Positions 601-19,160 of a stretch of 64,000 nucleotides of DNA are shown in pieces. The DNA comes from Streptomyces angustmyceticus (GTDB taxonomy: Bacteria; Actinomycetota; Actinomycetes; Streptomycetales; Streptomycetaceae), in assembly GCF_019933235.1 (NCBI RefSeq), contig NZ_CP082945.1, forward strand, positions 7,911,501 to 7,975,500, read 5' to 3'. Within the stretch, counting starts at the first letter, position 1, and every line of letters begins with the position of its first letter. Under the pieces are notes generated by a model that did not search any database, had not been told where the DNA came from, and worked only from the letters and a program-made list of their open reading frames with translations. The position numbers were made by a program, and so were the translations under genes.

Positions 601-818
601 CGCCCACCGTGGCGTCTCGCGCTGCTCTACTCGGCGCCCGCAGCACGAGGTTGTACCTGCTCACCTTCGCCGGCGGGGAATTCCGGTAAGGTGAGTCTCC
701 CTACGGAGTAATTCGCCTGGGCCAGGGCAGAGTTGAGCTGCTTTTGCCGCCCGGCCGAGGGGCTATTACGATCGTCATGTGCGCAGATAATTGGGGGGAG
801 GGCGATGAGGAGGCATCA

Positions 819-1919
819 ATGCTTTTTCCCGACCCCTTGCCAGATCTTTTGACGCCAGACCTGGGGATGAGTGCGGCGCTGACAGCAGCACAGGCGCAGA
901 CTGGCCTGACGTTTCCCGCCTTGGGTGTACACCTGAAATGCCCCATCTCGGTGGCGGCGGTCCGGAACCCGACCAGCACCTCCCCGTCCTTCGCCTATGC
1001 CGGTTTCCGTGACAGGGAGATGCATTTCTCGGGCAGCTTGCTGAAGGTCGCGGCCATGCTCGCCGCCTTTGAGTTGCGGCAGAGCGCTTCCGATTTTGCC
1101 GTCACCGAAGGCGACTGCTCGGCGAACGTGGTGTTCAACGACTTGAAGTCGGCCTTCAATGCAGCCATCCAGAAAGCCGCACCGCGTTTCCTGAGCGAAC
1201 CGGGCATCACCGAGCAGATGCGCGTGCCCAAGTACCCCAGGATCTTCGATTCGCCGCAGGGCCTCGCGAGTGGCGGATGCCTGATGTCGTTCAGCCCCGA
1301 TTTTGCGGCACACGTGCTGGGCATGATCGTACCCAGCAACAACGGCGAAGCCGCTGCCACGATCAAAGCGCTCGGGTACAGCTGGATCAATGGACTGCTG
1401 GCAAATGCCGGCCTCTTCGACCAGACCGCGAATCGGGGCATCTGGCTGGCCGGGACGTTCAAGCCCGGTCCTCCCGATCCCTTCCCTGCCGTGCGGGTGC
1501 CCTCCATGAATGACGGCGACTCGGCGCAGGCGACCACGACCATCGATATGGCGAGGTTCCTCGCACTGCTCATCGAAGGCGCAACACTGGACTCGCGCAG
1601 CGTTGACGGTATTGCCTCCGAAATGCGTGACCTCCTGGCCGGCGCTCAGTCTGTCGGTGACCGCTCTTTCATGACCACGGGAGCCCGGCCGGGCCTCAAT
1701 GGCCTCGGCGCAGGTTTCACGATCACTCATTCGAAGATTGGACTGGGGCCCCTCAACGCCGGGGGAGTAGTCGCTTCCGAGGCGACCATCCTCTCCCACA
1801 ACGACACCGGCCAGCAATTCCTCGTCGTTTGGCAGAACCTGCTGAACCTGAACGACCGCCACAACGCGATGTCGTTCATGGTGCGCCGGACCCTCCTCAA
1901 TTTCCTTGGCATTCCTTGA
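819..1919 (+). CDS. Beta-lactamase-like serine hydrolase
   Basis: A 366-residue protein when read from the ATG at 819, chosen because a GAGGAGG ribosome site lies 6 bases upstream; in-frame ATG codons at 744 and 777 lack one. Residues 71-80 read SGSLLKVAAM, an SxxK active-site motif (Ser73, Lys76) at the head of a helix, as in class A beta-lactamases and penicillin-binding-protein-like hydrolases. The segment around ATTTIDMARFLALL matches the helical region that follows the second catalytic motif in that fold. There is no clear signal peptide, so the protein may be cytoplasmic or unconventional. Third-position G/C is lower than in neighbouring genes, suggesting later arrival. It lies 161 bp upstream of the giant gene pair on the same strand. 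True beta-lactam hydrolysis is not implied; esterase or transpeptidase-like activity is equally possible. Confidence 0.7.
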   Translation: MLFPDPLPDLLTPDLGMSAALTAAQAQTGLTFPALGVHLKCPISVAAVRNPTSTSPSFAYAGFRDREMHFSGSLLKVAAMLAAFELRQSASDFAVTEGDCSANVVFNDLKSAFNAAIQKAAPRFLSEPGITEQMRVPKYPRIFDSPQGLASGGCLMSFSPDFAAHVLGMIVPSNNGEAAATIKALGYSWINGLLANAGLFDQTANRGIWLAGTFKPGPPDPFPAVRVPSMNDGDSAQATTTIDMARFLALLIEGATLDSRSVDGIASEMRDLLAGAQSVGDRSFMTTGARPGLNGLGAGFTITHSKIGLGPLNAGGVVASEATILSHNDTGQQFLVVWQNLLNLNDRHNAMSFMVRRTLLNFLGIP

Positions 1920-2080
1920 CCCGTAGCGGAAGCTCCGGTATCGGGAGCTGCCCGTTCCGCCCCCAGTGGCGGGCATCCGTCACCGGAGTGAGCATGGAAG
2001 AGAGGTGAAGGTGCCTACGGCGCACCTCGCCCCTCGTATGACCCTTCACCAGTTTCATGAGCTCGGGTGAGGCGTTCCTC

Positions 2081-5000
2081 ATGTCCTTCCGTATCCGCCG
2101 TCCTGTTTCTCTGAGGCTCGGGGAAGAGCTGCGCGACCATCCCGGTGATGGCCAGCACGATGACCACGGCGACCGCGGCGGCGATCGCGCCGGCGGCGGT
2201 GGTGGCTTCCGGGGCGATGGTTTCGGCGAGGGGCCCGGCGGTGGCGGCTTCGGGGGATTCGGCGGCCCGCCTCACGGCCCGCCTCACGGTCCTGGTCCGC
2301 ATCCAGGCCCGGGGCCTTTTCCCGGCCCCGACCGGCCCCCGGAGCCTGAGCCGCCGCACGAGGTGGACGTTGCGGAGGGGCCGTTCCGGGTGGTGCGGCC
2401 GGCGGACATGCTCGTCGTCGACATCGCCCTGGTCAACCTGCGCTTCGACGGCCGCCGCCTGGTGCGCAAGAACCGGGCGCAGCCCGCGTTCGTCCTCGCG
2501 GGGCTGCCGCCGCAGCATGTGCTGGAAGAGGTCCCCCTGAATCTGAAGGTCACTGCTTCCATGAAGGCAGTCACCGCCGGCTCGACCCGTCTGGCTTTCT
2601 CGGTGCCGGACAACATCGACAGCTTGGAGCTGTCGCTGGACGCGCTGCTCGGCTGGGCGCGCCTGGTGCCCATGACGGTGCCCGTCGTTGGCCCACAGAG
2701 CCCGGACACGCCGGGAACGACGGTCTTCCAGGGCCTTCCCCGAAGCGTCATCGAGTTCCCCACCCGACTGTTCCTCACCTACGACGACCCCGTGGACTGG
2801 GTCGTCCGCCCCCAAGCCCAACAGGCCGACGGCCGGACCGCGTTGTGGCACGCCCGGTTGCAGTTGCACGGTGAACGGGACGGCGACGTGCGGCTGCGGG
2901 CCTTTGCGACGGCCGGGGACCGGGGGGCACCGCCGGGGAACAGTCCGATCACTGCCGACAACATGGCGGACCTCGTCACCCTCAGCAGCCGGGCCGAGTT
3001 GGTCCCGCCTGGCGACGTGCCGATCGATGTACCCAGCGCGCCGTTGCATGCCGAGCAGTTCATCGTCACGCCTCAGGGCTCCTCGGTCCACCTGCACGGC
3101 CTATGGGAGAGTCCGCCGAATACCCCCGAGGAGCGGGAACGGTACAGGAAGGTCGGGCGTCATTTCCCCAATGTGGTGGCGTACGACCACATCACGGGGC
3201 TGGGGCGTGACCAGTACGTCCGCGTCGTGATACACGGCAGCTTGTCGACCGGTCACGAGTCCCTCCTCGTGACGGAAACCAGGCGGTGGTTCATCGCGAG
3301 CGCGGACGACGGAATCGTCGCGTACCTGCACAAGGAGCAGTACATCGTCGTCAAGCAGCCGGAGGTCGAGTATGGAGCTCATACCGGCTTCCAGCACGCA
3401 GGACGCGAAATGCCGTTCCGCACGCTGCGCATCACGGACCGGGTCACTCCACTGATCCAGACTCGGACGGAAAACCCGCAAAACGTGGCTTTCTGGGTGA
3501 ACCTTCAGGACTCCGGTAAGGACTTCGATTTCACCCTGATCGGCACAGACACGGAGGGGCGCAAGGTCAGCTTCACCATGCCTCTGGTGTTCGTGCCCGA
3601 CGGACTGACCGATGAACAGGAGCAGTTGACGAGGCTGTACAACCCGGCGACGCCAACAGAAGAAATGAAGGCAATGATGGAGAAGCGCCTGAGGCGGGAG
3701 ATGCATGGTCAAGTGATGGCCATGGCGGAGCCGCCCGCCGACGCTTTCGGCAGCACCAGCCATGCGGTCGGGACCCTCACCTTCGGGCTCGGCACCTTCG
3801 CGCTCGGCACCCAGGATGGCACCCCTGTGGTGGGCCAGCCCCACGTTTCCGCCGCGGCGGTACGCGTCCCCGCCGTCGAGCAGTTCACCCCGAACGCCGG
3901 TGATCTCGAGGTCAAGTTCAACGCCACCTATCTCCAGCAGACGATGCAGGGACATCCGGCGGGTGCGTACCTGGATCTGCAAAGGCCGCTCAGCCTCACC
4001 TTCGGGGCCGAGCAAGCCGGTGGACTCTCCAGCCCGAATTCCGCGGTGAAGACGATCACCAGCCGGGCAGGCGTCATCCCGGACGTCATCAAGACGGACC
4101 CCACCACCGGCGCAGTCCTCGACGCGGCACCCATCAAAACCATCAGGGATGCCTTCGGCGGGGCCCAACTGCTCGGTATCGACCTCAGCACATACCTGAA
4201 GGGCCTCGTCAAGGATCAACTCGGCGCACTGCAGCAGCTCGACGACAACCAGATCAAGGATATTCTGGACAACCCCCAAAGGCAGCTGCCCGCGCCCGTG
4301 CTGCGCATACGCGACCTGGTGGACGGACAACAGGGCAAGGAACTGCGGTATGTGTGGAAGCCGCCGCTGGAACGGCCGACGACGGCAGGCGGTGGGGTGG
4401 ACCCGACCGCCCTCCTCGACGTGTCCAAGGCCTCGCTGATCCTGGATGCCCGGACCGTCCGCTCGACGGAAGCCGTCGAGAAGTCCACGGTGCAGGGCAG
4501 CCTGAGCCACTTCGCGCTGGACTTCTTTGACATCGCCCGAGTGGAATTCGACGAGCTGAAGTTCAAGACCAGCCCAGGGCAGAAGCCCGATGTGACGGCC
4601 TCCGGTGTGGAGCTGAAGTTCAGCAGTGCGCTGGAGTTCATCAATTCCCTCCGCAGCGCGCTGCCCGCTGATGTCTTCGGTCCCGGCGCGTTCATCGATG
4701 TCCAGACCACCGGCCTCCGTGCCGGCTACAAACTCGCCCTTCCGGCCATCGGCGTCGGCGTCTTCACCCTGTCGAACGTCACCCTGTCGGCCGAGCTGGT
4801 GATCCCCTTCGACGGCAAGCCGGTCGCGTTCCGCTTCTCGGTCTCCGAGCAGAAGCACCCCTTCAACGTCACGGTCTCCCTGTTCGGTGGCGGCGGCTAC
4901 TTCTCCATGCTGGTGGACGCCAGCGGTGTACAGGAGATCGAGGGATCCATCGAGTTCGGTGGCGCAGCGGCGCTGAATCTCGGCGTCGCGAGCGGCGGGG

Positions 5001-5338
5001 TGTCGATCATGGCGGGCATCCGCTTCCAGCTCGACAATAACGCGGTCTCCCTCAGCGGCTACCTGCGGTGCAACGGCTTCCTGACGGTGCTTGGCATCGT
5101 GACAGTGTCCGTCGAGTTCTATCTGGAGCTCACCTACGAGAAGAACAAAGAGACCCACCAGTCGGTGGTCCGCGGCAGGGGCACCCTCACGGTCAGCGTA
5201 CGGATCGCCTTCTTCAGCAAGTCCGTCCAACTCGAAATGGAGCGGAGTTTCGCCGGCGCACCGGGCGACCCGACGTTCGCCCAATGCTTCTCGAAGGATC
5301 AGGACTGGCCGGAGTACTGCGCGGCGTACGCCGCGTGA
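2081..5338 (+). CDS. Giant protein A of unknown function
   Basis: About 1085 residues. I prefer the ATG at 2081 over the one at 2057 because GGGTGAGG lies 8 bases before it. Residues 20-100 are extremely rich in Gly, His, Asp and Pro (runs of GGGG, GPPHGPPHG). The rest is predicted mostly beta: alternating hydrophobic strands dominate, and the last 250 residues are a series of short amphipathic strands (for example FNVTVSLFGGGGYFSMLV) resembling a beta-sheet stack or barrel. I see no signal peptide, no membrane helix and no nucleotide-binding motif. The stop is only 21 bases before the next giant gene, so the two are surely co-transcribed and probably make one complex. I do not recognise the family. 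A structural or surface-assembly role is only a guess. Confidence 0.8.
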   Translation: MSFRIRRPVSLRLGEELRDHPGDGQHDDHGDRGGDRAGGGGGFRGDGFGEGPGGGGFGGFGGPPHGPPHGPGPHPGPGPFPGPDRPPEPEPPHEVDVAEGPFRVVRPADMLVVDIALVNLRFDGRRLVRKNRAQPAFVLAGLPPQHVLEEVPLNLKVTASMKAVTAGSTRLAFSVPDNIDSLELSLDALLGWARLVPMTVPVVGPQSPDTPGTTVFQGLPRSVIEFPTRLFLTYDDPVDWVVRPQAQQADGRTALWHARLQLHGERDGDVRLRAFATAGDRGAPPGNSPITADNMADLVTLSSRAELVPPGDVPIDVPSAPLHAEQFIVTPQGSSVHLHGLWESPPNTPEERERYRKVGRHFPNVVAYDHITGLGRDQYVRVVIHGSLSTGHESLLVTETRRWFIASADDGIVAYLHKEQYIVVKQPEVEYGAHTGFQHAGREMPFRTLRITDRVTPLIQTRTENPQNVAFWVNLQDSGKDFDFTLIGTDTEGRKVSFTMPLVFVPDGLTDEQEQLTRLYNPATPTEEMKAMMEKRLRREMHGQVMAMAEPPADAFGSTSHAVGTLTFGLGTFALGTQDGTPVVGQPHVSAAAVRVPAVEQFTPNAGDLEVKFNATYLQQTMQGHPAGAYLDLQRPLSLTFGAEQAGGLSSPNSAVKTITSRAGVIPDVIKTDPTTGAVLDAAPIKTIRDAFGGAQLLGIDLSTYLKGLVKDQLGALQQLDDNQIKDILDNPQRQLPAPVLRIRDLVDGQQGKELRYVWKPPLERPTTAGGGVDPTALLDVSKASLILDARTVRSTEAVEKSTVQGSLSHFALDFFDIARVEFDELKFKTSPGQKPDVTASGVELKFSSALEFINSLRSALPADVFGPGAFIDVQTTGLRAGYKLALPAIGVGVFTLSNVTLSAELVIPFDGKPVAFRFSVSEQKHPFNVTVSLFGGGGYFSMLVDASGVQEIEGSIEFGGAAALNLGVASGGVSIMAGIRFQLDNNAVSLSGYLRCNGFLTVLGIVTVSVEFYLELTYEKNKETHQSVVRGRGTLTVSVRIAFFSKSVQLEMERSFAGAPGDPTFAQCFSKDQDWPEYCAAYAA

Positions 5339-5359
5339 GCGAGCCGCGTGGAGACCACC

Positions 5360-8300
5360 ATGGACTTCGAACAGCAGATCAACTGGACCGTTCTCCCGGC
5401 CGGACTGTCGGACGACGGCAGGCACGTCAAGGTGTCGGTGTTCATCGCCCCGCGGCTGATGGGGCCGGCCCCGTCCGACGACCAGACGAAGCGCGCCACG
5501 CTGGCCCCCCACTTCCCCGATTTCGTCCACTGGCCGGACAAGATCACGCCCGCCACTTTTGATTTTGCCACCGGAGAGGGCACCTCCGAGCCCCCCACGA
5601 CCGACGAAGTCTCCGAGACCTCCGACACGCCTGCCCCTTCGACGCCCTTCGTCACCGCGCTGAAGCCGCAAGCCCCGCTCCCTGATGTGAACTTGTGGAA
5701 GAGCCTCTTCAGTGTGGACACGCCGCTCGATCCCTACGTCTTCGAACGGCATACGGACCAGGCGTGCGAGACCTACTCCACCCAGCAGGTCAGCGGCTTC
5801 ACCAAGGGCAAGTACGCCGAAGCGGCCATGAATTCACCCGAGACACCGCCCCGCACCAGGGACCTGATGCGCCCATCGAGCGACGGGTCGACCGGCGACC
5901 CCAGAACGGGCGAAGCCCCAAGAGCCACCGGGGGCACGGGGCCCGGGGACGTGCCCCCGGCGTCCCCCACGGAGGACGAAATGCCGATGCCTCCTGAGCT
6001 CGCGGACCTGCACAGCTTCCATACGATCGAGCTCAACAGGCCGCCCACCGTTGACGGTGAAGAGCCGCCCCCGTCGCCGCCACCGAAGAAGCACGATCCC
6101 GACTTCCACGAGATGCTCACCTGGCTCGGCGATCACCCCACGCTGCTGAGGCGACTCGGACTCGTTCTGGACTTCCTCCTGCCGGCCGACCTGATCCCCG
6201 TCTCTTCAGGCGAGCGGTTCCTGAAGGTGACTCCCCACTGGACGCCGGAACTGGGCAAGGGCACGAAGGGGTCGCACAACGTGTCCCCTCGCACGCGCTA
6301 TGTCTTCCTCCCGGACCGCCGCGCCTTCGTCTCCCGGGCCTCGACCGTCACCAACGGCCCGCTGACGTCACCGTCCCTCGGCCTGGTGGAGCTGAAGGGA
6401 AAATTCACCGTTGAGCCGGCTGACATCGACGCCGCCGCAGGCAAGATGATCGCGCCCGCCAAGGACGCCACCGGACTCGCCCCGGTACGGACCCATGGGC
6501 TCTGCCTGGTCAGGAACGACCGGCTGGGCACCCTCAAGCAGGATTTCGCGCGGGCAGCCGAGCACGACGCGGCCTTCACCCGCGTGGTCGATCAGCAGAG
6601 AGCACAAGGTTCGACGCCCGCCCCGCAGATTCCGGGAGCCGCCGCCCCGCACGCCGCCGAGGATGAGGTGCCCGCCCCCGAGCTGTTCGCCCAGAACCTG
6701 ATCCGGGGCCACCGGCTCGACATCTGGGACGAGACACGACGTCAGTGGTTCTCGCTGCACGAGCGCGAGGTGGAGTACCGGCAGGCGCGCGGCGGACCGG
6801 TCCTGCTCACGGCCTCGGACGAGGGTTTCTTCCAGGCCCACCTGGCCACACCACCCCGCGACGCCGTGAACCCCGACCACCTCTACGTACCCGAGCAGCT
6901 GGTCACCTGGGACGGATGGTCGCTCTCCGCGCCCCGGCCGGGCCTGGTGCTGGACACCGACGACGGTTCGGCCGAGGACAGCCGGCCCCCCAACAAGCCG
7001 GTGCCGCTCAAGAACCAGGCGGAGACGAAACTGCCCCTGGAAATCACGCCCAAGGTGCGGCCCGGCAGCCTGCCCAAGCTACGGTTCGGCCACGAGTACC
7101 GGGTACGGCTGCGTACCGTGGACCTCGCGGGAAACGGCCTGGACATGACGGAGGCCGACGCCCTGGTCGACCTGGCCGGCAGCGGCACGGACGGAGCGGC
7201 CCCCGATGGCCTGAAGGACAGGAAAGCCCTGATGCTCCCCGACGAAGCCGGGCTGCTGACCTTCCAGAGGTTCGAGTCCGTCCTGGCGCCCGCCGTGGTG
7301 CCCAGATTCCCGTTCGGGGAAGGCGCCTCGCCCTTCCGGATGGTCATCCGGAGCAGCCCGGGGGCCGGCCCACCCCCGGCCGGAGCCCGAACACAAGTCA
7401 CGGTCCACCTGGCCAATGTCCAGTTCGGCAAGACCAACGACGAGGTGCGCATCGTCCAGCAGGCCCTCCTGGACAACGGCCGCTCCCTTCCCCACGGCGC
7501 GGACGGAATCTTCCGCAACGAGACCAAGACCGCCTACGCGGAGGAGCAACGTGCCCAGGGCTTCACGGGCAGCGATGCTGATGGCATCCCCGGCTGCACA
7601 TCTCTCACCAAACTCGGCCGCAACAGAGGCTTCGCCGTCGACTGCGGCATCGGTACCGGCACTGGGACCGGGACCGTGGCGAGTACCGGAGCCGGCCGGA
7701 CGGCTGAGCAGTACGCCGCGGACTTCAACCGGTCGTCACTGGTCACCGCGGAAGGACACCTCCCGTACCGAGGCACGGACGAACGCCATGTGGTGGCACC
7801 GAAGGCGTCACTGCGGTGCATCGAGTGGCACGGCCTCCTGGACGATGCCATCGGCTCCACGGACCGCAACGTCCAGAACGCGGTCTACGACCTGGCCGTA
7901 CGGGAGAGCGGCTCGCTGAGCGACACCTCCCCGTCCCAGCCGGACCTCCAGGTCGAGACGATCAAGTCGCCGGCGGCGGACCCCAAGAACCCGGCGAACA
8001 CCGTTCTGCACACGGGCGAGCAGGTCGAACTTCCCTACCTCCCCGATCCGTTGTCCACGGGAGCCGTGTTCCTGGACCTGCCGGGGATGCCCGCCGGGGA
8101 GCCCTTCCCGGTCCCCTGGGACGGCGAGATCTGGCACCGGCCGCAATCCCTGAGGCTGCGGCTGGCCGAAGGCACCGCGCCGCCGCGCTTCGACGAGGCG
8201 TCCCGCGTGCTGACCGTCTCCCTGCCGAAGGGCGCCGTGGCGACCGTCCGGGTGTGCTCCAGGATCGACTTCGACGAGAAAGTCATGGGCATGGCCGGGT

Positions 8301-10117
8301 GGTGCCGGGAGCAGCAGGAGTCGGCACCGAGGCTCGCGTCGGAGATGGAGGGGGACGCGGCGGCGAGAAGAGCGGCGGAGGCACGGAGAACCGACGACAC
8401 GCTGGCGCTGGCCGCAGCCAGCCGGCACTGGATGTTCACCCCCTGGCAAGAACTGAGACTCGTCCACGCGGTCCAACAGCCACTGAATTCACCGGTGTTG
8501 ACGCTGGCGACCCCGGCGACCCCGCGTGCACGCGGGGCGACCGCCGAGCATCTCGCCGGTTCCGTCGCGCTGGACGAGGACAGCACGGACCGGATCGACC
8601 TGATCGCCGAGTGGACCGAGGTGACGGACGGCGCCGGGGGCCGCGAGACCCGTGAGATGACCGCCCCGGTCTTCGACCTGCTGACGGCGAGGGCGAGCCT
8701 GAACGGCGTCCCGGGCACCGAACCCTACCTCCTCCAGAACGGCGTCCTGAGCTTCAGCACCCAGGCGGCCGAGGACAAGGCGAAAGCGGAGGCCGCGGCC
8801 GCGGCGGCACACCCAGGCAACCCCCCGACCCCGGACAACCCTCAGGGCAACCAGGGCAACAAGCCACACCCGCTCCCGCCCGTCCCCGCGAAGCACGAGT
8901 TCGGCGACACCAAACACCGGACGGTGCGCTACCACCCAGTGGCCGGCAGCAAGTTCGCCGACTACTTCCCGCCACAGTTCGCCACGCCCGGCAAGAACGT
9001 GCTGACCGTGGAGGGAGAGGCGCAGGAATACTCGGTGCCGAGCAGCGAGTGCCCGATGGCTCCCCGACTGCTGTACTGCGTGCCCACGCTCACCCTGGAG
9101 CACGTCGGCGGGCCGCCCGGTCCCATCGTCCACCAGCGGCGCGGTCGCGGAATCCGGGTGTACGTGGACCGCCCCTGGTTCTCGTCCGGAGACGGCGAAC
9201 TGCTCGGCGTCGTCATCGGCGAACCGCCGGGAGGCGACCCCAAGTCCGCACGGGACTCCCTGGTCACCCTGATGGGCCGCGACCCCATCCACCGTTCCGC
9301 GCCGGTCTTCGCCCCGACCCCGGAGATGTTCACCAACGCGGTGCGTCGGTCCGGCCCGCTCCTCCTCCCCACGCCGTCGGGAACCATCCTCCCGGTCACG
9401 GTCGTCGGCTTCAGCCCGCAGTTCGAAACTGACACTCCGAAGCCCGGCAAGGAAGAGAACGAGGACGAGAACAAGGCCGGCCGCTGGTTCTTCGACCTGG
9501 ACCTGGATACCGGGGACGCCTGCCTGCCCTTCGTCCGGCTCGCTCTGGTCCGCTACCAGCCGGATTCCATCCCCGGAGCGGAGATCTCCAAGGAGGTCGT
9601 TCTCGCCGACCTGGTGCGCACCCTGCCCGACCGCGAACTGAGGGTCACGCCCGGCGATCCGCTGTCGGTCAGCGTCACCGGGCCCTCCTGGGACCCTTCC
9701 GGCTCCCCGCCGCCGCGGATCACCGCCACGCTGCAACGCCGGAACAGCCTGGTCGACGACGATGACCTCGGCTGGGTGACCCTCGAAGACACCACCGTCC
9801 AACTCACCTCCGTCGACGCGGAGTCCTCCCGAACCCCCTTCTACACGGGCCAGCTCCCGATACCGCGCGGGCGTCGCGGCCCGTTGCGCCTGATGGTCCT
9901 CGAAACCGAGGGCATCCCTCCCGACGGCTCCACCCCGCCCACCACACCCGGGCCGGTGATCTACTGCGACACGGTCACCTTCGCACGGAGGCCGGGCGGC
10001 CCGGGTGGCCCGGGCGGCGACCATGACGGGGATGGCGACCACGACGGCCACGACCACCATGGGCCGGGCGACCACGGTGGCGGGTTCGGTGGGTTCCCTC
10101 ACACTGACCCGCGCTGA
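5360..10117 (+). CDS. Giant protein B with internal peptidoglycan-binding-like segment
   Basis: About 1585 residues from the ATG at 5360 (GGAG upstream; a GTG at 5348 would add four residues). Residues 1-40 (QQINWTVLPAGL then VKVSVFIAPRL) look like the conserved entry of a family I cannot name. Residues roughly 688-760 (NDEVRIVQQALLDNG, ADGIFRNETKTAY, DGIPGCTSLTKLG) have the layout of a PG_binding_1 three-helix domain, including the DGxFGxxT-like turn, but inserted inside a larger protein. Two low-complexity stretches (Pro/Ala/Glu-rich, near residues 170-240 and 1130-1180) look like linkers. The last 40 residues are Gly/His/Asp-rich, matching the composition of the N-terminus of protein A. 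No signal peptide or membrane helix is visible. Function unknown; co-operonic with giant A. Confidence 0.8.
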   Translation: MDFEQQINWTVLPAGLSDDGRHVKVSVFIAPRLMGPAPSDDQTKRATLAPHFPDFVHWPDKITPATFDFATGEGTSEPPTTDEVSETSDTPAPSTPFVTALKPQAPLPDVNLWKSLFSVDTPLDPYVFERHTDQACETYSTQQVSGFTKGKYAEAAMNSPETPPRTRDLMRPSSDGSTGDPRTGEAPRATGGTGPGDVPPASPTEDEMPMPPELADLHSFHTIELNRPPTVDGEEPPPSPPPKKHDPDFHEMLTWLGDHPTLLRRLGLVLDFLLPADLIPVSSGERFLKVTPHWTPELGKGTKGSHNVSPRTRYVFLPDRRAFVSRASTVTNGPLTSPSLGLVELKGKFTVEPADIDAAAGKMIAPAKDATGLAPVRTHGLCLVRNDRLGTLKQDFARAAEHDAAFTRVVDQQRAQGSTPAPQIPGAAAPHAAEDEVPAPELFAQNLIRGHRLDIWDETRRQWFSLHEREVEYRQARGGPVLLTASDEGFFQAHLATPPRDAVNPDHLYVPEQLVTWDGWSLSAPRPGLVLDTDDGSAEDSRPPNKPVPLKNQAETKLPLEITPKVRPGSLPKLRFGHEYRVRLRTVDLAGNGLDMTEADALVDLAGSGTDGAAPDGLKDRKALMLPDEAGLLTFQRFESVLAPAVVPRFPFGEGASPFRMVIRSSPGAGPPPAGARTQVTVHLANVQFGKTNDEVRIVQQALLDNGRSLPHGADGIFRNETKTAYAEEQRAQGFTGSDADGIPGCTSLTKLGRNRGFAVDCGIGTGTGTGTVASTGAGRTAEQYAADFNRSSLVTAEGHLPYRGTDERHVVAPKASLRCIEWHGLLDDAIGSTDRNVQNAVYDLAVRESGSLSDTSPSQPDLQVETIKSPAADPKNPANTVLHTGEQVELPYLPDPLSTGAVFLDLPGMPAGEPFPVPWDGEIWHRPQSLRLRLAEGTAPPRFDEASRVLTVSLPKGAVATVRVCSRIDFDEKVMGMAGWCREQQESAPRLASEMEGDAAARRAAEARRTDDTLALAAASRHWMFTPWQELRLVHAVQQPLNSPVLTLATPATPRARGATAEHLAGSVALDEDSTDRIDLIAEWTEVTDGAGGRETREMTAPVFDLLTARASLNGVPGTEPYLLQNGVLSFSTQAAEDKAKAEAAAAAAHPGNPPTPDNPQGNQGNKPHPLPPVPAKHEFGDTKHRTVRYHPVAGSKFADYFPPQFATPGKNVLTVEGEAQEYSVPSSECPMAPRLLYCVPTLTLEHVGGPPGPIVHQRRGRGIRVYVDRPWFSSGDGELLGVVIGEPPGGDPKSARDSLVTLMGRDPIHRSAPVFAPTPEMFTNAVRRSGPLLLPTPSGTILPVTVVGFSPQFETDTPKPGKEENEDENKAGRWFFDLDLDTGDACLPFVRLALVRYQPDSIPGAEISKEVVLADLVRTLPDRELRVTPGDPLSVSVTGPSWDPSGSPPPRITATLQRRNSLVDDDDLGWVTLEDTTVQLTSVDAESSRTPFYTGQLPIPRGRRGPLRLMVLETEGIPPDGSTPPTTPGPVIYCDTVTFARRPGGPGGPGGDHDGDGDHDGHDHHGPGDHGGGFGGFPHTDPR

Positions 10118-10471
10118 CATGCCAAAACCCGGTTAGCGGATCCAGGACCGGCGTACGCCCGCGCGAGCGAGGATCTCAAGCACTGGTGGGCGGAGAATCC
10201 GCGCACTATGCGTGCCGAGTACACCGAGCGGATCACCGGTATCGGTCGGAGGCCGCGGACGCCGCCCGCAAGAGCCGTACCGACCGCGACAACCGCCTGT
10301 GAGCGAAGGGGGGCAACGCATGACAGAGCGCGAGCAGGTCGTGCGTGCCCCCTGAACGAGGGCAATGAGGCCGGCCGCGCCGGTACCCCGCGCCACGGGC
10401 GCCCCGCGTGACCGACGACCTGTTGCATACCGCGTGGGTTCGCGGCTGCAACAAGGCGGACCCGTTCCCCA
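10118..10471. other. Gap downstream of giant gene pair
   Basis: No believable gene. A short plus-strand piece near 10150-10260 reads EDLKHWWAENPRTM, a helix-like fragment that could be a relic of a transposon protein, but it is too short and interrupted to name. Confidence 0.3.
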
Positions 10472-17938: not shown

Positions 17939-18489
17939 TGTCCCTCCGAACAAGGACGCTACCACGAAACCATGAGGTCAACTGCCCAGTAATCTTTGGG
18001 TAGATGGCCTCCGATGACCTGCACGGGAGGATGTCGGAGCGAGTGTCACTCGGCCGGGAACGCGCATCCGCCAGGTAGTGTCCCTCGTCATGCTGTTGGA
18101 GATCAACTGGCGGTTGCATTGCGGTGCGTTGGGTGGCACGGAGGAACTAAAAGAGAGTTACGGCATATATCGCCCATATCCTCTTCGGGGAGGTGGCGGC
18201 GCGGTAAGGCGATCTATTCGTCATGCATCTCGAAGAGCGCAGCGGAAGTCAACCGGATGGTCCGACAACGCAACAGCGGAGACCCCAACCGGCAACATCT
18301 GGATGAAGCGCGAACCGGAAGTCGCGCACTGCCGCGCCCTCTCCGGTCAGGACTTCGGCGTAGTCGGCTGACGCCCGGTTGCTGACGTCTCGTCATGTTG
18401 ACCGGGTTCGGTACACCGCAGGCACGGGCGTCCGCGATCACGGAGTTCTCTACGCTCTGTGACCTTGGACTGCCCGTGCCTGCCGACGC
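17939..18489. other. Gap with decayed sequence
   Basis: The first 150 bases should hold the promoter of the minus-strand gene. The remainder appears to be the lost 3' end of the recombinase relic and shows no intact frame. Confidence 0.4.
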
Positions 18490-19160
18490 ATCATCTCTGA
18501 TCTCCCCTGCCTTTGAACAGCTCAGAGGGGAGTGGCCGGTGTGCCGGACCGGCAGGTCGGCGCGGGCGGTGAGCCGGGTGGTGACGTCGCCGACGGCTTC
18601 GGGGGAGGGGCCGGCGTCCATGATGGTGTGCCAGCGCGGGTGCAGGGCGCGGAAGGCGTAGCCGTCGGGGTCGCTCAGGCTGGCGGCTTCGGTCCAGGCG
18701 CGCCAGGCGCGGACGGGGCAGGTGGAGGGGCGGGAGCCGAAGGGCACCTTCACCTTGCGGGGGCTGGCCTTGGAGACGCGGACGTCGATGGTGATCTTGT
18801 ACTCGGTGCGGCCGGTGACAACCACGCCGGACAGGCGGCGGTCGATGGTCGACGGTGAGGTGAAGGTGCCGGCCTTCCAGCCGGGCTGGACCCACAGCCA
18901 CTCGACGAACGCGGTCAGGGCCCCGGGGGCGGCGGTGGTCGGCAGGCCGAGCAGCGCGCAGAAGGTCTCCCACTGCTTCCAGTCCGCGGCGTAGCCCTCG
19001 ACGGTGTTCTGCGGCCGGAGGTCGATCTCGTGCTGGGCGGAGCGCTTCTCCCGCTCGGCGAGCTTGGCCAGGACCTCGTCGTCGAAGCCGGTGCCGGCCG
19101 GGGCGAGGTCGATGGGGCGGGCAGGTGCGCCTCGGTGATGCGGCACGGCTTCCGTTCCCT
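18490..19160 (-). pseudogene. Tyrosine recombinase / integrase pseudogene
   Basis: The minus-strand frame has a core-binding (SAM-like) domain: LRPQNTVEGYAADWKQWETF and APGALTAFVEWLWVQPGW, then STIDRRLSGVVVTGRTEYKI. It then jumps straight to DVRVSKASPRKVKVPFGSRP and CPVRAWRAWTEAASLSDPDG, then RADLPVRHTGHSP. The stretch that should hold the first catalytic Arg is missing, and the C-terminal box with the H-x-x-R and the nucleophilic Tyr is also lost. The protein family is the actinomycete site-specific recombinase type that normally has about 350-400 residues. Only a non-functional core remains. Confidence 0.65.

What the first reader, a model, noticed from the sequence alone, without database searches (positions are those of the whole stretch)
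2081..10117. Tandem giant genes of unknown function with matching Gly/His/Asp-rich ends
Two genes of about 3.3 and 4.8 kb, 21 bases apart, occupy 8 kb. Neither shows a signal peptide, membrane helix or catalytic motif. Protein A begins and protein B ends with the same kind of Gly/His/Asp/Pro-rich sequence, as if the ends could interact or bind metal. The large, mostly beta composition suggests a structural complex.
Basis: partly seen in the sequence, partly recalled or inferred. Interest (0 to 1): 0.6.

Follow-up and report, generated by a model that had tools for sequence, protein, structure and literature searches.

The report
Inseparable pair of giant unnamed genes
Two very large neighbouring bacterial genes of no known family form a pair that nearly always travels together between bacteria, and several clues suggest that their proteins work as one complex on the outside of the cell, although what it does is unknown.

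Summary
Protein A (2081-5338) and protein B (5360-10117) are real genes under purifying selection, and both Gly/His/Asp/Pro-rich ends exist. Otherwise no family or PDB sequence match covers either core.

The pair is close to obligate. In the window's family A is found in 41 of 394 genomes and B in 42, sharing 41; across the phylum 13 and 12 of 396, sharing 12. A precedes B on one strand in all loci examined. Their distance matrices agree (r=0.89). Relatives lie on proteobacterial plasmids.

Export is suggested by Tat signals on A in 9 of 47 loci and on no B, by a TatA gene beside one pair, and by two unrelated wall-binding modules in different B lineages. Against it: most A homologues, the window's included, show no signal peptide.

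A's C-terminal 250 residues are strongly amphipathic beta. The matching tails mark mainly one Streptomyces clade, so they are not the pair's core.

Best reading: a wall-attached two-subunit complex, exported folded in some lineages; activity unknown. Structure prediction failed (mean pLDDT 33 and 37), so a known fold cannot be excluded.

The parts
819..1919 (+). serine-hydrolase-like gene upstream of A (ORF open from 744; start 819 matches the start of its L087 homologue); found with A-B in the closest relatives only
   Evidence: 94% identical in L011 and L012, no match in the other loci given to apart from a chance-level one; a further homologue in L087; Beta-lactamase2 only at E 0.035, below cut-off
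2081..5338 (+). gene A (alternative start 2057)
2132..2362 (+). Gly/Pro/His/Asp-rich N-terminal tail of A
4490..5242 (+). conserved amphipathic beta domain at the C-terminus of A (residues 812-1062), also found at the end of the ~3000-aa proteobacterial homologues
5360..10117 (+). gene B (alternative GTG start 5348)
7394..7645 (+). peptidoglycan-binding-like insert in B (residues 683-766 counted from 5348)
8870..9697 (+). most recognisable conserved region of B, with the motif RPWFSSGDGE
9992..10117 (+). Gly/His/Asp-rich C-terminal tail of B

Best explanation
A and B are two subunits of one extracellular, envelope-attached complex that is inherited as a unit and moves between bacteria. A ends in a conserved amphipathic beta domain, which probably contacts a membrane or another hydrophobic partner. 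B has no export signal and in two Gram-positive lineages has gained unrelated cell-wall-binding modules. In several lineages A bears a twin-arginine (Tat) signal, so the likeliest route there is export of the folded complex through Tat with B carried along. In the window's clade the peptidoglycan-binding insert would anchor B to the wall, and the Gly/His/Asp tails are a clade-specific addition. Shown: co-inheritance, order, sequence features. Inferred: complex formation, export, anchoring, and any function.
For: Co-occurrence 12 of 13 and 41 of 42. A before B, same strand, in 24 of 24 loci and in the 20 loci L084-L103, one of them a repeat of L012. Distances of A and B over 37 loci: r=0.894, Mantel 0.001. 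Tat-like signals by one rule in 7 of 48 A ORFs (47 loci) and 0 of 47 B ORFs, shuffled controls 0.7% and 0.6%; two more A by eye, L056 and L097. TatA gene 49 bp after B in Sinorhizobium LMB1, the only TatA on that plasmid. PG-binding insert in 13 of 36 B; CW_binding_2 at E 2e-46 in 1 of 14 B. Wall or extracellular domains in several neighbours. Alternating hydropathy in A 812-1062.
Against: 38 of 47 loci, the window's clade included, show no Tat signal on A by rule or eye, and no clear Sec signal was seen. TatA was found in only 1 of 9 plasmid records. Complex formation is not shown. No neighbour is constant. Neighbour families were picked after being seen. Structure prediction failed.
Confidence: 0.42

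Rival explanations
1. A-B is an intracellular complex, released only when cells lyse, as endolysins are; the wall-binding insert then binds walls of lysed or neighbouring cells.
For: No export signal on A in 38 of 47 loci and on no B; the insert resembles the ends of Streptomyces phage endolysins, 45-54% identity in the 20 of 27 records listed.
Against: Tat signals on A in nine loci, and TatA beside one pair.
Confidence: 0.3
2. A's amphipathic beta domain is a membrane-inserting part and the pair is a weapon against other microbes or invertebrates, carried on mobile elements.
For: Patchy distribution, plasmid and island locations, alternating hydropathy.
Against: No toxin, pore-former or defence model matches; no immunity-like partner is constant.
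Confidence: 0.13
3. One of the two is an enzyme of an unrecognised family.
For: Invariant H, D, R and W residues in B; a serine-hydrolase-like gene lies upstream in the closest relatives.
Against: No enzyme family at a convincing score among the 15 A and 14 B sequences scanned.
Confidence: 0.1

Closest known systems
Tat hitchhiker complexes such as E. coli PaoABC (PMC4273604; only the start of the abstract seen, in the listing)
   Same: One partner bears a Tat signal, the other none, and their genes are adjacent, in nine of 47 loci.
   Different: Most pairs lack the signal; the proteins are much larger and no cofactor domain was found; co-export is not shown.
Streptomyces phage endolysin C-terminal domain (PHROG 17214, NF038080, PF01471)
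   Same: The insert at B 683-766 belongs to this kind by sequence.
   Different: It is one small module inside a 1585-aa protein; no lytic domain was found.
Wall-anchored proteins with CW_binding_2 repeats
   Same: One B homologue, L055 by reading, ends in such repeats.
   Different: 1 of 14 B scanned; the window's B has none.
Matrix metalloproteinases (PG-binding-like, matrixin and hemopexin parts; architecture recalled)
   Same: Genes beside some pairs carry matrixin with PG-binding, or hemopexin repeats.
   Different: Neither the window's A nor its B matches matrixin or hemopexin.

Membership tests
Tat hitchhiker complex | Tat signal on one partner | tested here: inconclusive
   7 of 48 A ORFs by rule plus two by eye; the window's A has none
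Tat hitchhiker complex | No signal on the second partner | tested here: met
   0 of 47 B ORFs by the Tat rule; one B ORF (L054) has a hydrophobic stretch upstream that may lie before its true start
Tat hitchhiker complex | Tat-dependent export of both partners | not testable with these tools
   needs an experiment
Peptidoglycan-binding protein (B) | Recognised wall-binding module | tested here: met
   PHROG 17214 E 9e-13; NF038080 E 2e-6 and PF01471 E 0.001, both below their curated cut-offs
Peptidoglycan-binding protein (B) | Exposure to the wall | not testable with these tools
   no signal peptide in the window's A or B
Pore-forming or lipid-binding beta protein (A) | Run of amphipathic strands | tested here: met
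   lag-1 -0.37, lag-2 +0.37 in A 812-1062, not in four other regions of A
Pore-forming or lipid-binding beta protein (A) | Matching fold | tested here: inconclusive
   models of mean pLDDT 33 and 37; no fold search was run
Known anti-phage defence system | Match to a PADLOC model | tested here: not met
   window A and B, L006 A and one L007 B piece: 0 families

The most novel reading that the evidence does not exclude
A-B is an undescribed class of very large two-subunit envelope complex, exported folded (with its own TatA in one lineage) and used by unrelated bacteria as a surface device: A's amphipathic beta sheet engages membranes or carries lipids, exchangeable wall-binding modules moor B, and in one Streptomyces clade matched Gly/His/Asp-rich tails hold the complexes together.
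Probability: 0.15. Interest if true: 0.75.

Novelty: new variant of a known kind. Interest (0 to 1): 0.52.

Why it matters
About one in ten sampled genomes of the window's family (41 of 394) and plasmids of Rhizobium, Sinorhizobium, Agrobacterium, Ruegeria, Cupriavidus and Diaphorobacter carry this pair, yet no protein family covers its core. If the Tat reading is right, complexes of very roughly 260-570 kDa (from protein lengths at 110 Da per residue) would cross the membrane folded, which would test the capacity of that pathway. The pair is a compact target for deletion in a genus important for antibiotics. The family as such is unnamed; the grade 'new variant' is given because the inferred way of working is of a known kind and the fold could not be tested.

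Tried and rejected
Function by sequence. Pfam, NCBIfam, PHROGs, PADLOC and PDB-sequence searches, by single sequence or profile, gave only the wall-binding modules and weak, scattered hits. The weak hits include Apolipoprotein in one of 15 A homologues (E 5e-5), which I take for an amphipathic helix, and DUF6987, Baculo_PEP_C and HisKA_3 at E 0.015-0.021 in one each.

Structure. All of A (residues 103-1093) and the last 312 residues gave mean pLDDT 32.7 and 36.9, from four rows that amount to two distinct sequences. No fold search was run, since matches would mean nothing.

Tail pairing. Tails at both ends in 12 of 35 loci, A only 2, B only 1, neither 20; Fisher p 1e-6. Ten of the 12 lie in one clade, one is its sister (L091) and the last (L048) is a borderline, His-free call, so that p value is not valid as independent evidence. 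Within-locus likeness was not significant (p 0.09, 0.055, 0.088).

Defence. Some proteobacterial pairs lie near DpdE/DpdF, DNA methylase, AAA/endonuclease or HsdR-like genes, but the four A or B sequences scanned match no defence model. Left as unproven.

Phage origin. A has no match in the phage collection at E 0.01; B matches 27 records, and in the 20 listed only through the insert. One IMG/VR contig (L058/L064) holds A-B beside genes that look like prophage head genes by eye; more likely host DNA next to a prophage.

Weak points of my counts. Matrixin and hemopexin were chosen for counting after they had been seen near A-B; base rates for LGFP, subtilase, PatG, glucosaminidase and PG-binding neighbours were not measured. 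The ten neighbours were hand-picked. dN/dS of the hydrolase could not be computed. No proteobacterial census was possible.

Literature. Seven full-text searches listed no paper that I could recognise as describing this pair; only listings and starts of abstracts were seen. That is not proof of absence.

Full report
What is there. The window is 7,911,501-7,975,500 of an 8.12-Mb, one-contig genome; the genes lie about 0.2 Mb from the contig's end. That it is a Streptomyces is inferred from its closest relatives. Two large ORFs follow each other: A, ATG 2081 (or 2057) to 5338, and B, ATG 5360 (or GTG 5348) to 10117. Start 5360 is preferred because the GTG is not conserved in S. nigrescens. dN/dS against L011, L012 and L010 is 0.25, 0.27, 0.42 for A and 0.27, 0.29, 0.37 for B. 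Neither has a transmembrane-like stretch or a recognisable signal peptide. The tails are 87.5% and 92.5% G/H/D/P in their best 40-residue windows.

B holds an insert at residues 683-766: PHROG 17214 endolysin (E 9e-13), NF038080 (E 2e-6, below its cut-off) and PF01471 (E 0.001, below its cut-off). It is 45-54% identical to Streptomyces phage records, mostly endolysins, in the 20 of 27 records listed. The rest of the window's A and B matches nothing convincing in Pfam, NCBIfam, PHROGs, PADLOC or PDB sequences.

A near-inseparable pair. A profile of A's C-terminus finds 13 of 396 genomes drawn across the phylum; a profile of B finds 12 of the same 396, all among the 13. The thirteenth (G112) has a 1426-aa ORF right after A that resembles B by eye but is not reached by the B profile. 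In the window's family A is found in 41 of 394 genomes and B in 42, sharing 41; the extra B (G695) is marginal, E 8.5e-4 in a 342-aa frame. In one fragmented genome (G609) A and B fall on different contigs. A precedes B on the same strand in 24 of 24 loci that hold both (L057 has no B by profile) and in the 20 loci L084-L103, of which L084 repeats L012's genome. Pairwise distances of A and B correlate at 0.894 over 37 loci (Mantel 0.001). Five loci were dropped before that count as duplicate or incomplete (L084, L052, L048, L050, L094), and L004, L007, L057 and L060-L063 were not part of it. Both genes are also found on plasmids of Rhizobium, Sinorhizobium, Agrobacterium, Ruegeria, Cupriavidus and Diaphorobacter. 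In Sinorhizobium LMB1, Agrobacterium and Ruegeria A is about 3000 aa, with the shared domain near its end.

Mobility. Two other Streptomyces (L011, L012) share window 706/710-10153 at about 95%, with no DNA similarity in the flanks that were fetched. The block holds the serine-hydrolase-like gene, A and B. In S. nigrescens the A-B DNA is 81% identical but the hydrolase was not found in the 27 kb fetched. The pair is accessory and looks mobile.

Where it acts. By one rule, Tat-like signals precede 7 of 48 A ORFs (47 loci) and 0 of 47 B ORFs; shuffled sequences give 0.7% and 0.6%. Two more A, L056 and L097, have Tat signals by eye. In Sinorhizobium LMB1 a TatA gene lies 49 bp after B and is the only TatA on that plasmid; the other eight plasmid records searched have none. 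B has gained two unrelated wall-binding modules: the PG-binding insert in 13 of 36 B ORFs, one a repeat locus, and CW_binding_2 (E 2e-46) in 1 of 14 B scanned, which by reading is L055. Against export: A in 38 of 47 loci, including the window's clade, has no Tat signal by rule or eye, and no clear Sec signal was seen.

Neighbourhood. Apart from A and B no gene is constant. Among ten hand-picked neighbours, nine carry wall-related, extracellular or protease domains: glucosaminidase 37 bp after B in L098, LGFP repeats in L091, LGFP with a partial subtilase in L093, PG-binding in L088, matrixin with PG-binding in L092 and L099, subtilase in L087, PatG domains in L005, hemopexin in L010; L054's neighbour matched nothing. 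L052 has hemopexin repeats 2 kb after B. In 32 of the 52 A-positive genomes matrixin is found in 6; the two strong full-length hits (E 2e-44, 4e-27) lie about 1 kb upstream of A in G568 and G466, the other four are weak and elsewhere. Hemopexin is found in 7 of the same 32; in three (G187, G625, G710) it lies within about 2 kb of the pair, G625 and G710 being close relatives, and in four it lies elsewhere. Both families were chosen after being seen, so the counts only suggest an association.

A's C-terminal domain. In a hydropathy profile averaged over 15 sequences, residues 812-1062 alternate (lag-1 -0.37, lag-2 +0.37); four other regions of A do not (lag-2 -0.12 to 0.08). That is the mark of amphipathic strands.

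The tails. Eleven tested loci with the PG-binding insert form one clade in both trees. Tails at both ends occur in ten of these, in the sister locus L091 and, as a borderline call, in L048; L092 passes for A only, and L103 for A only outside the clade; 20 of 35 loci have neither. So the tails are not part of the pair in general. Within-locus likeness of the two tails is not significant. That the ends interact or bind metal is possible and unproven.

Mechanism. (1) Inheritance as one unit: shown. (2) A complex of A and B: inferred from (1). (3) Export of the folded complex through Tat: inferred, with sequence support in nine loci. (4) Wall attachment through B: inferred from two unrelated modules. 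(5) Contact of A's beta domain with a membrane or hydrophobic partner: inferred from hydropathy alone. The main rival is an intracellular complex released by lysis. Precedent for export of signal-less partners with a signal-bearing subunit is the Tat hitchhiker mechanism (PMC4273604; only the start of the abstract seen).

Verdict. The finding is real and wider than the tails: an unnamed, accessory, co-inherited pair of giant proteins found in two phyla, with clues to an extracellular, wall-attached life and no known activity. The confidence in the main reading is set at 0.42.

Noticed in passing
window 706-10153: A block of hydrolase-like gene, A and B recurs at about 95% identity in two other Streptomyces with no DNA similarity in the fetched flanks, as if moved as a cassette.
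   Followed up: partly
window 18217-19146 (-): Gene that looks like a tyrosine recombinase by eye; a fragmentary homologue (82 aa) lies near the A-B pair in L012/L084 (cluster 7).
   Followed up: no
L006 21296-21463: TatA gene just after the A-B pair on a Sinorhizobium plasmid, the only TatA on that record.
   Followed up: yes
L007, L060, L061, L062: Giant A-B relatives on rhizobial conjugative plasmids lie near genes of DNA-modification or restriction type (DpdE/DpdF, N-6 methylase, AAA ATPase with endonuclease, HsdR-like).
   Followed up: no
L005 19169-20125, L095 13744-14622, L099 6160-6966: Stand-alone PatG-domain proteins beside the A-B pair in three related loci (Pfam tested on the L005 one only).
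   Followed up: no
L057 (G112): A very divergent A-like and B-like pair, with the A side in overlapping frames; it hints at a larger superfamily.
   Followed up: partly
L092 and L099, upstream of A: Divergently placed matrixin metalloproteases with PG-binding domains, the only strong full-length matrixins in 32 genomes searched.
   Followed up: partly
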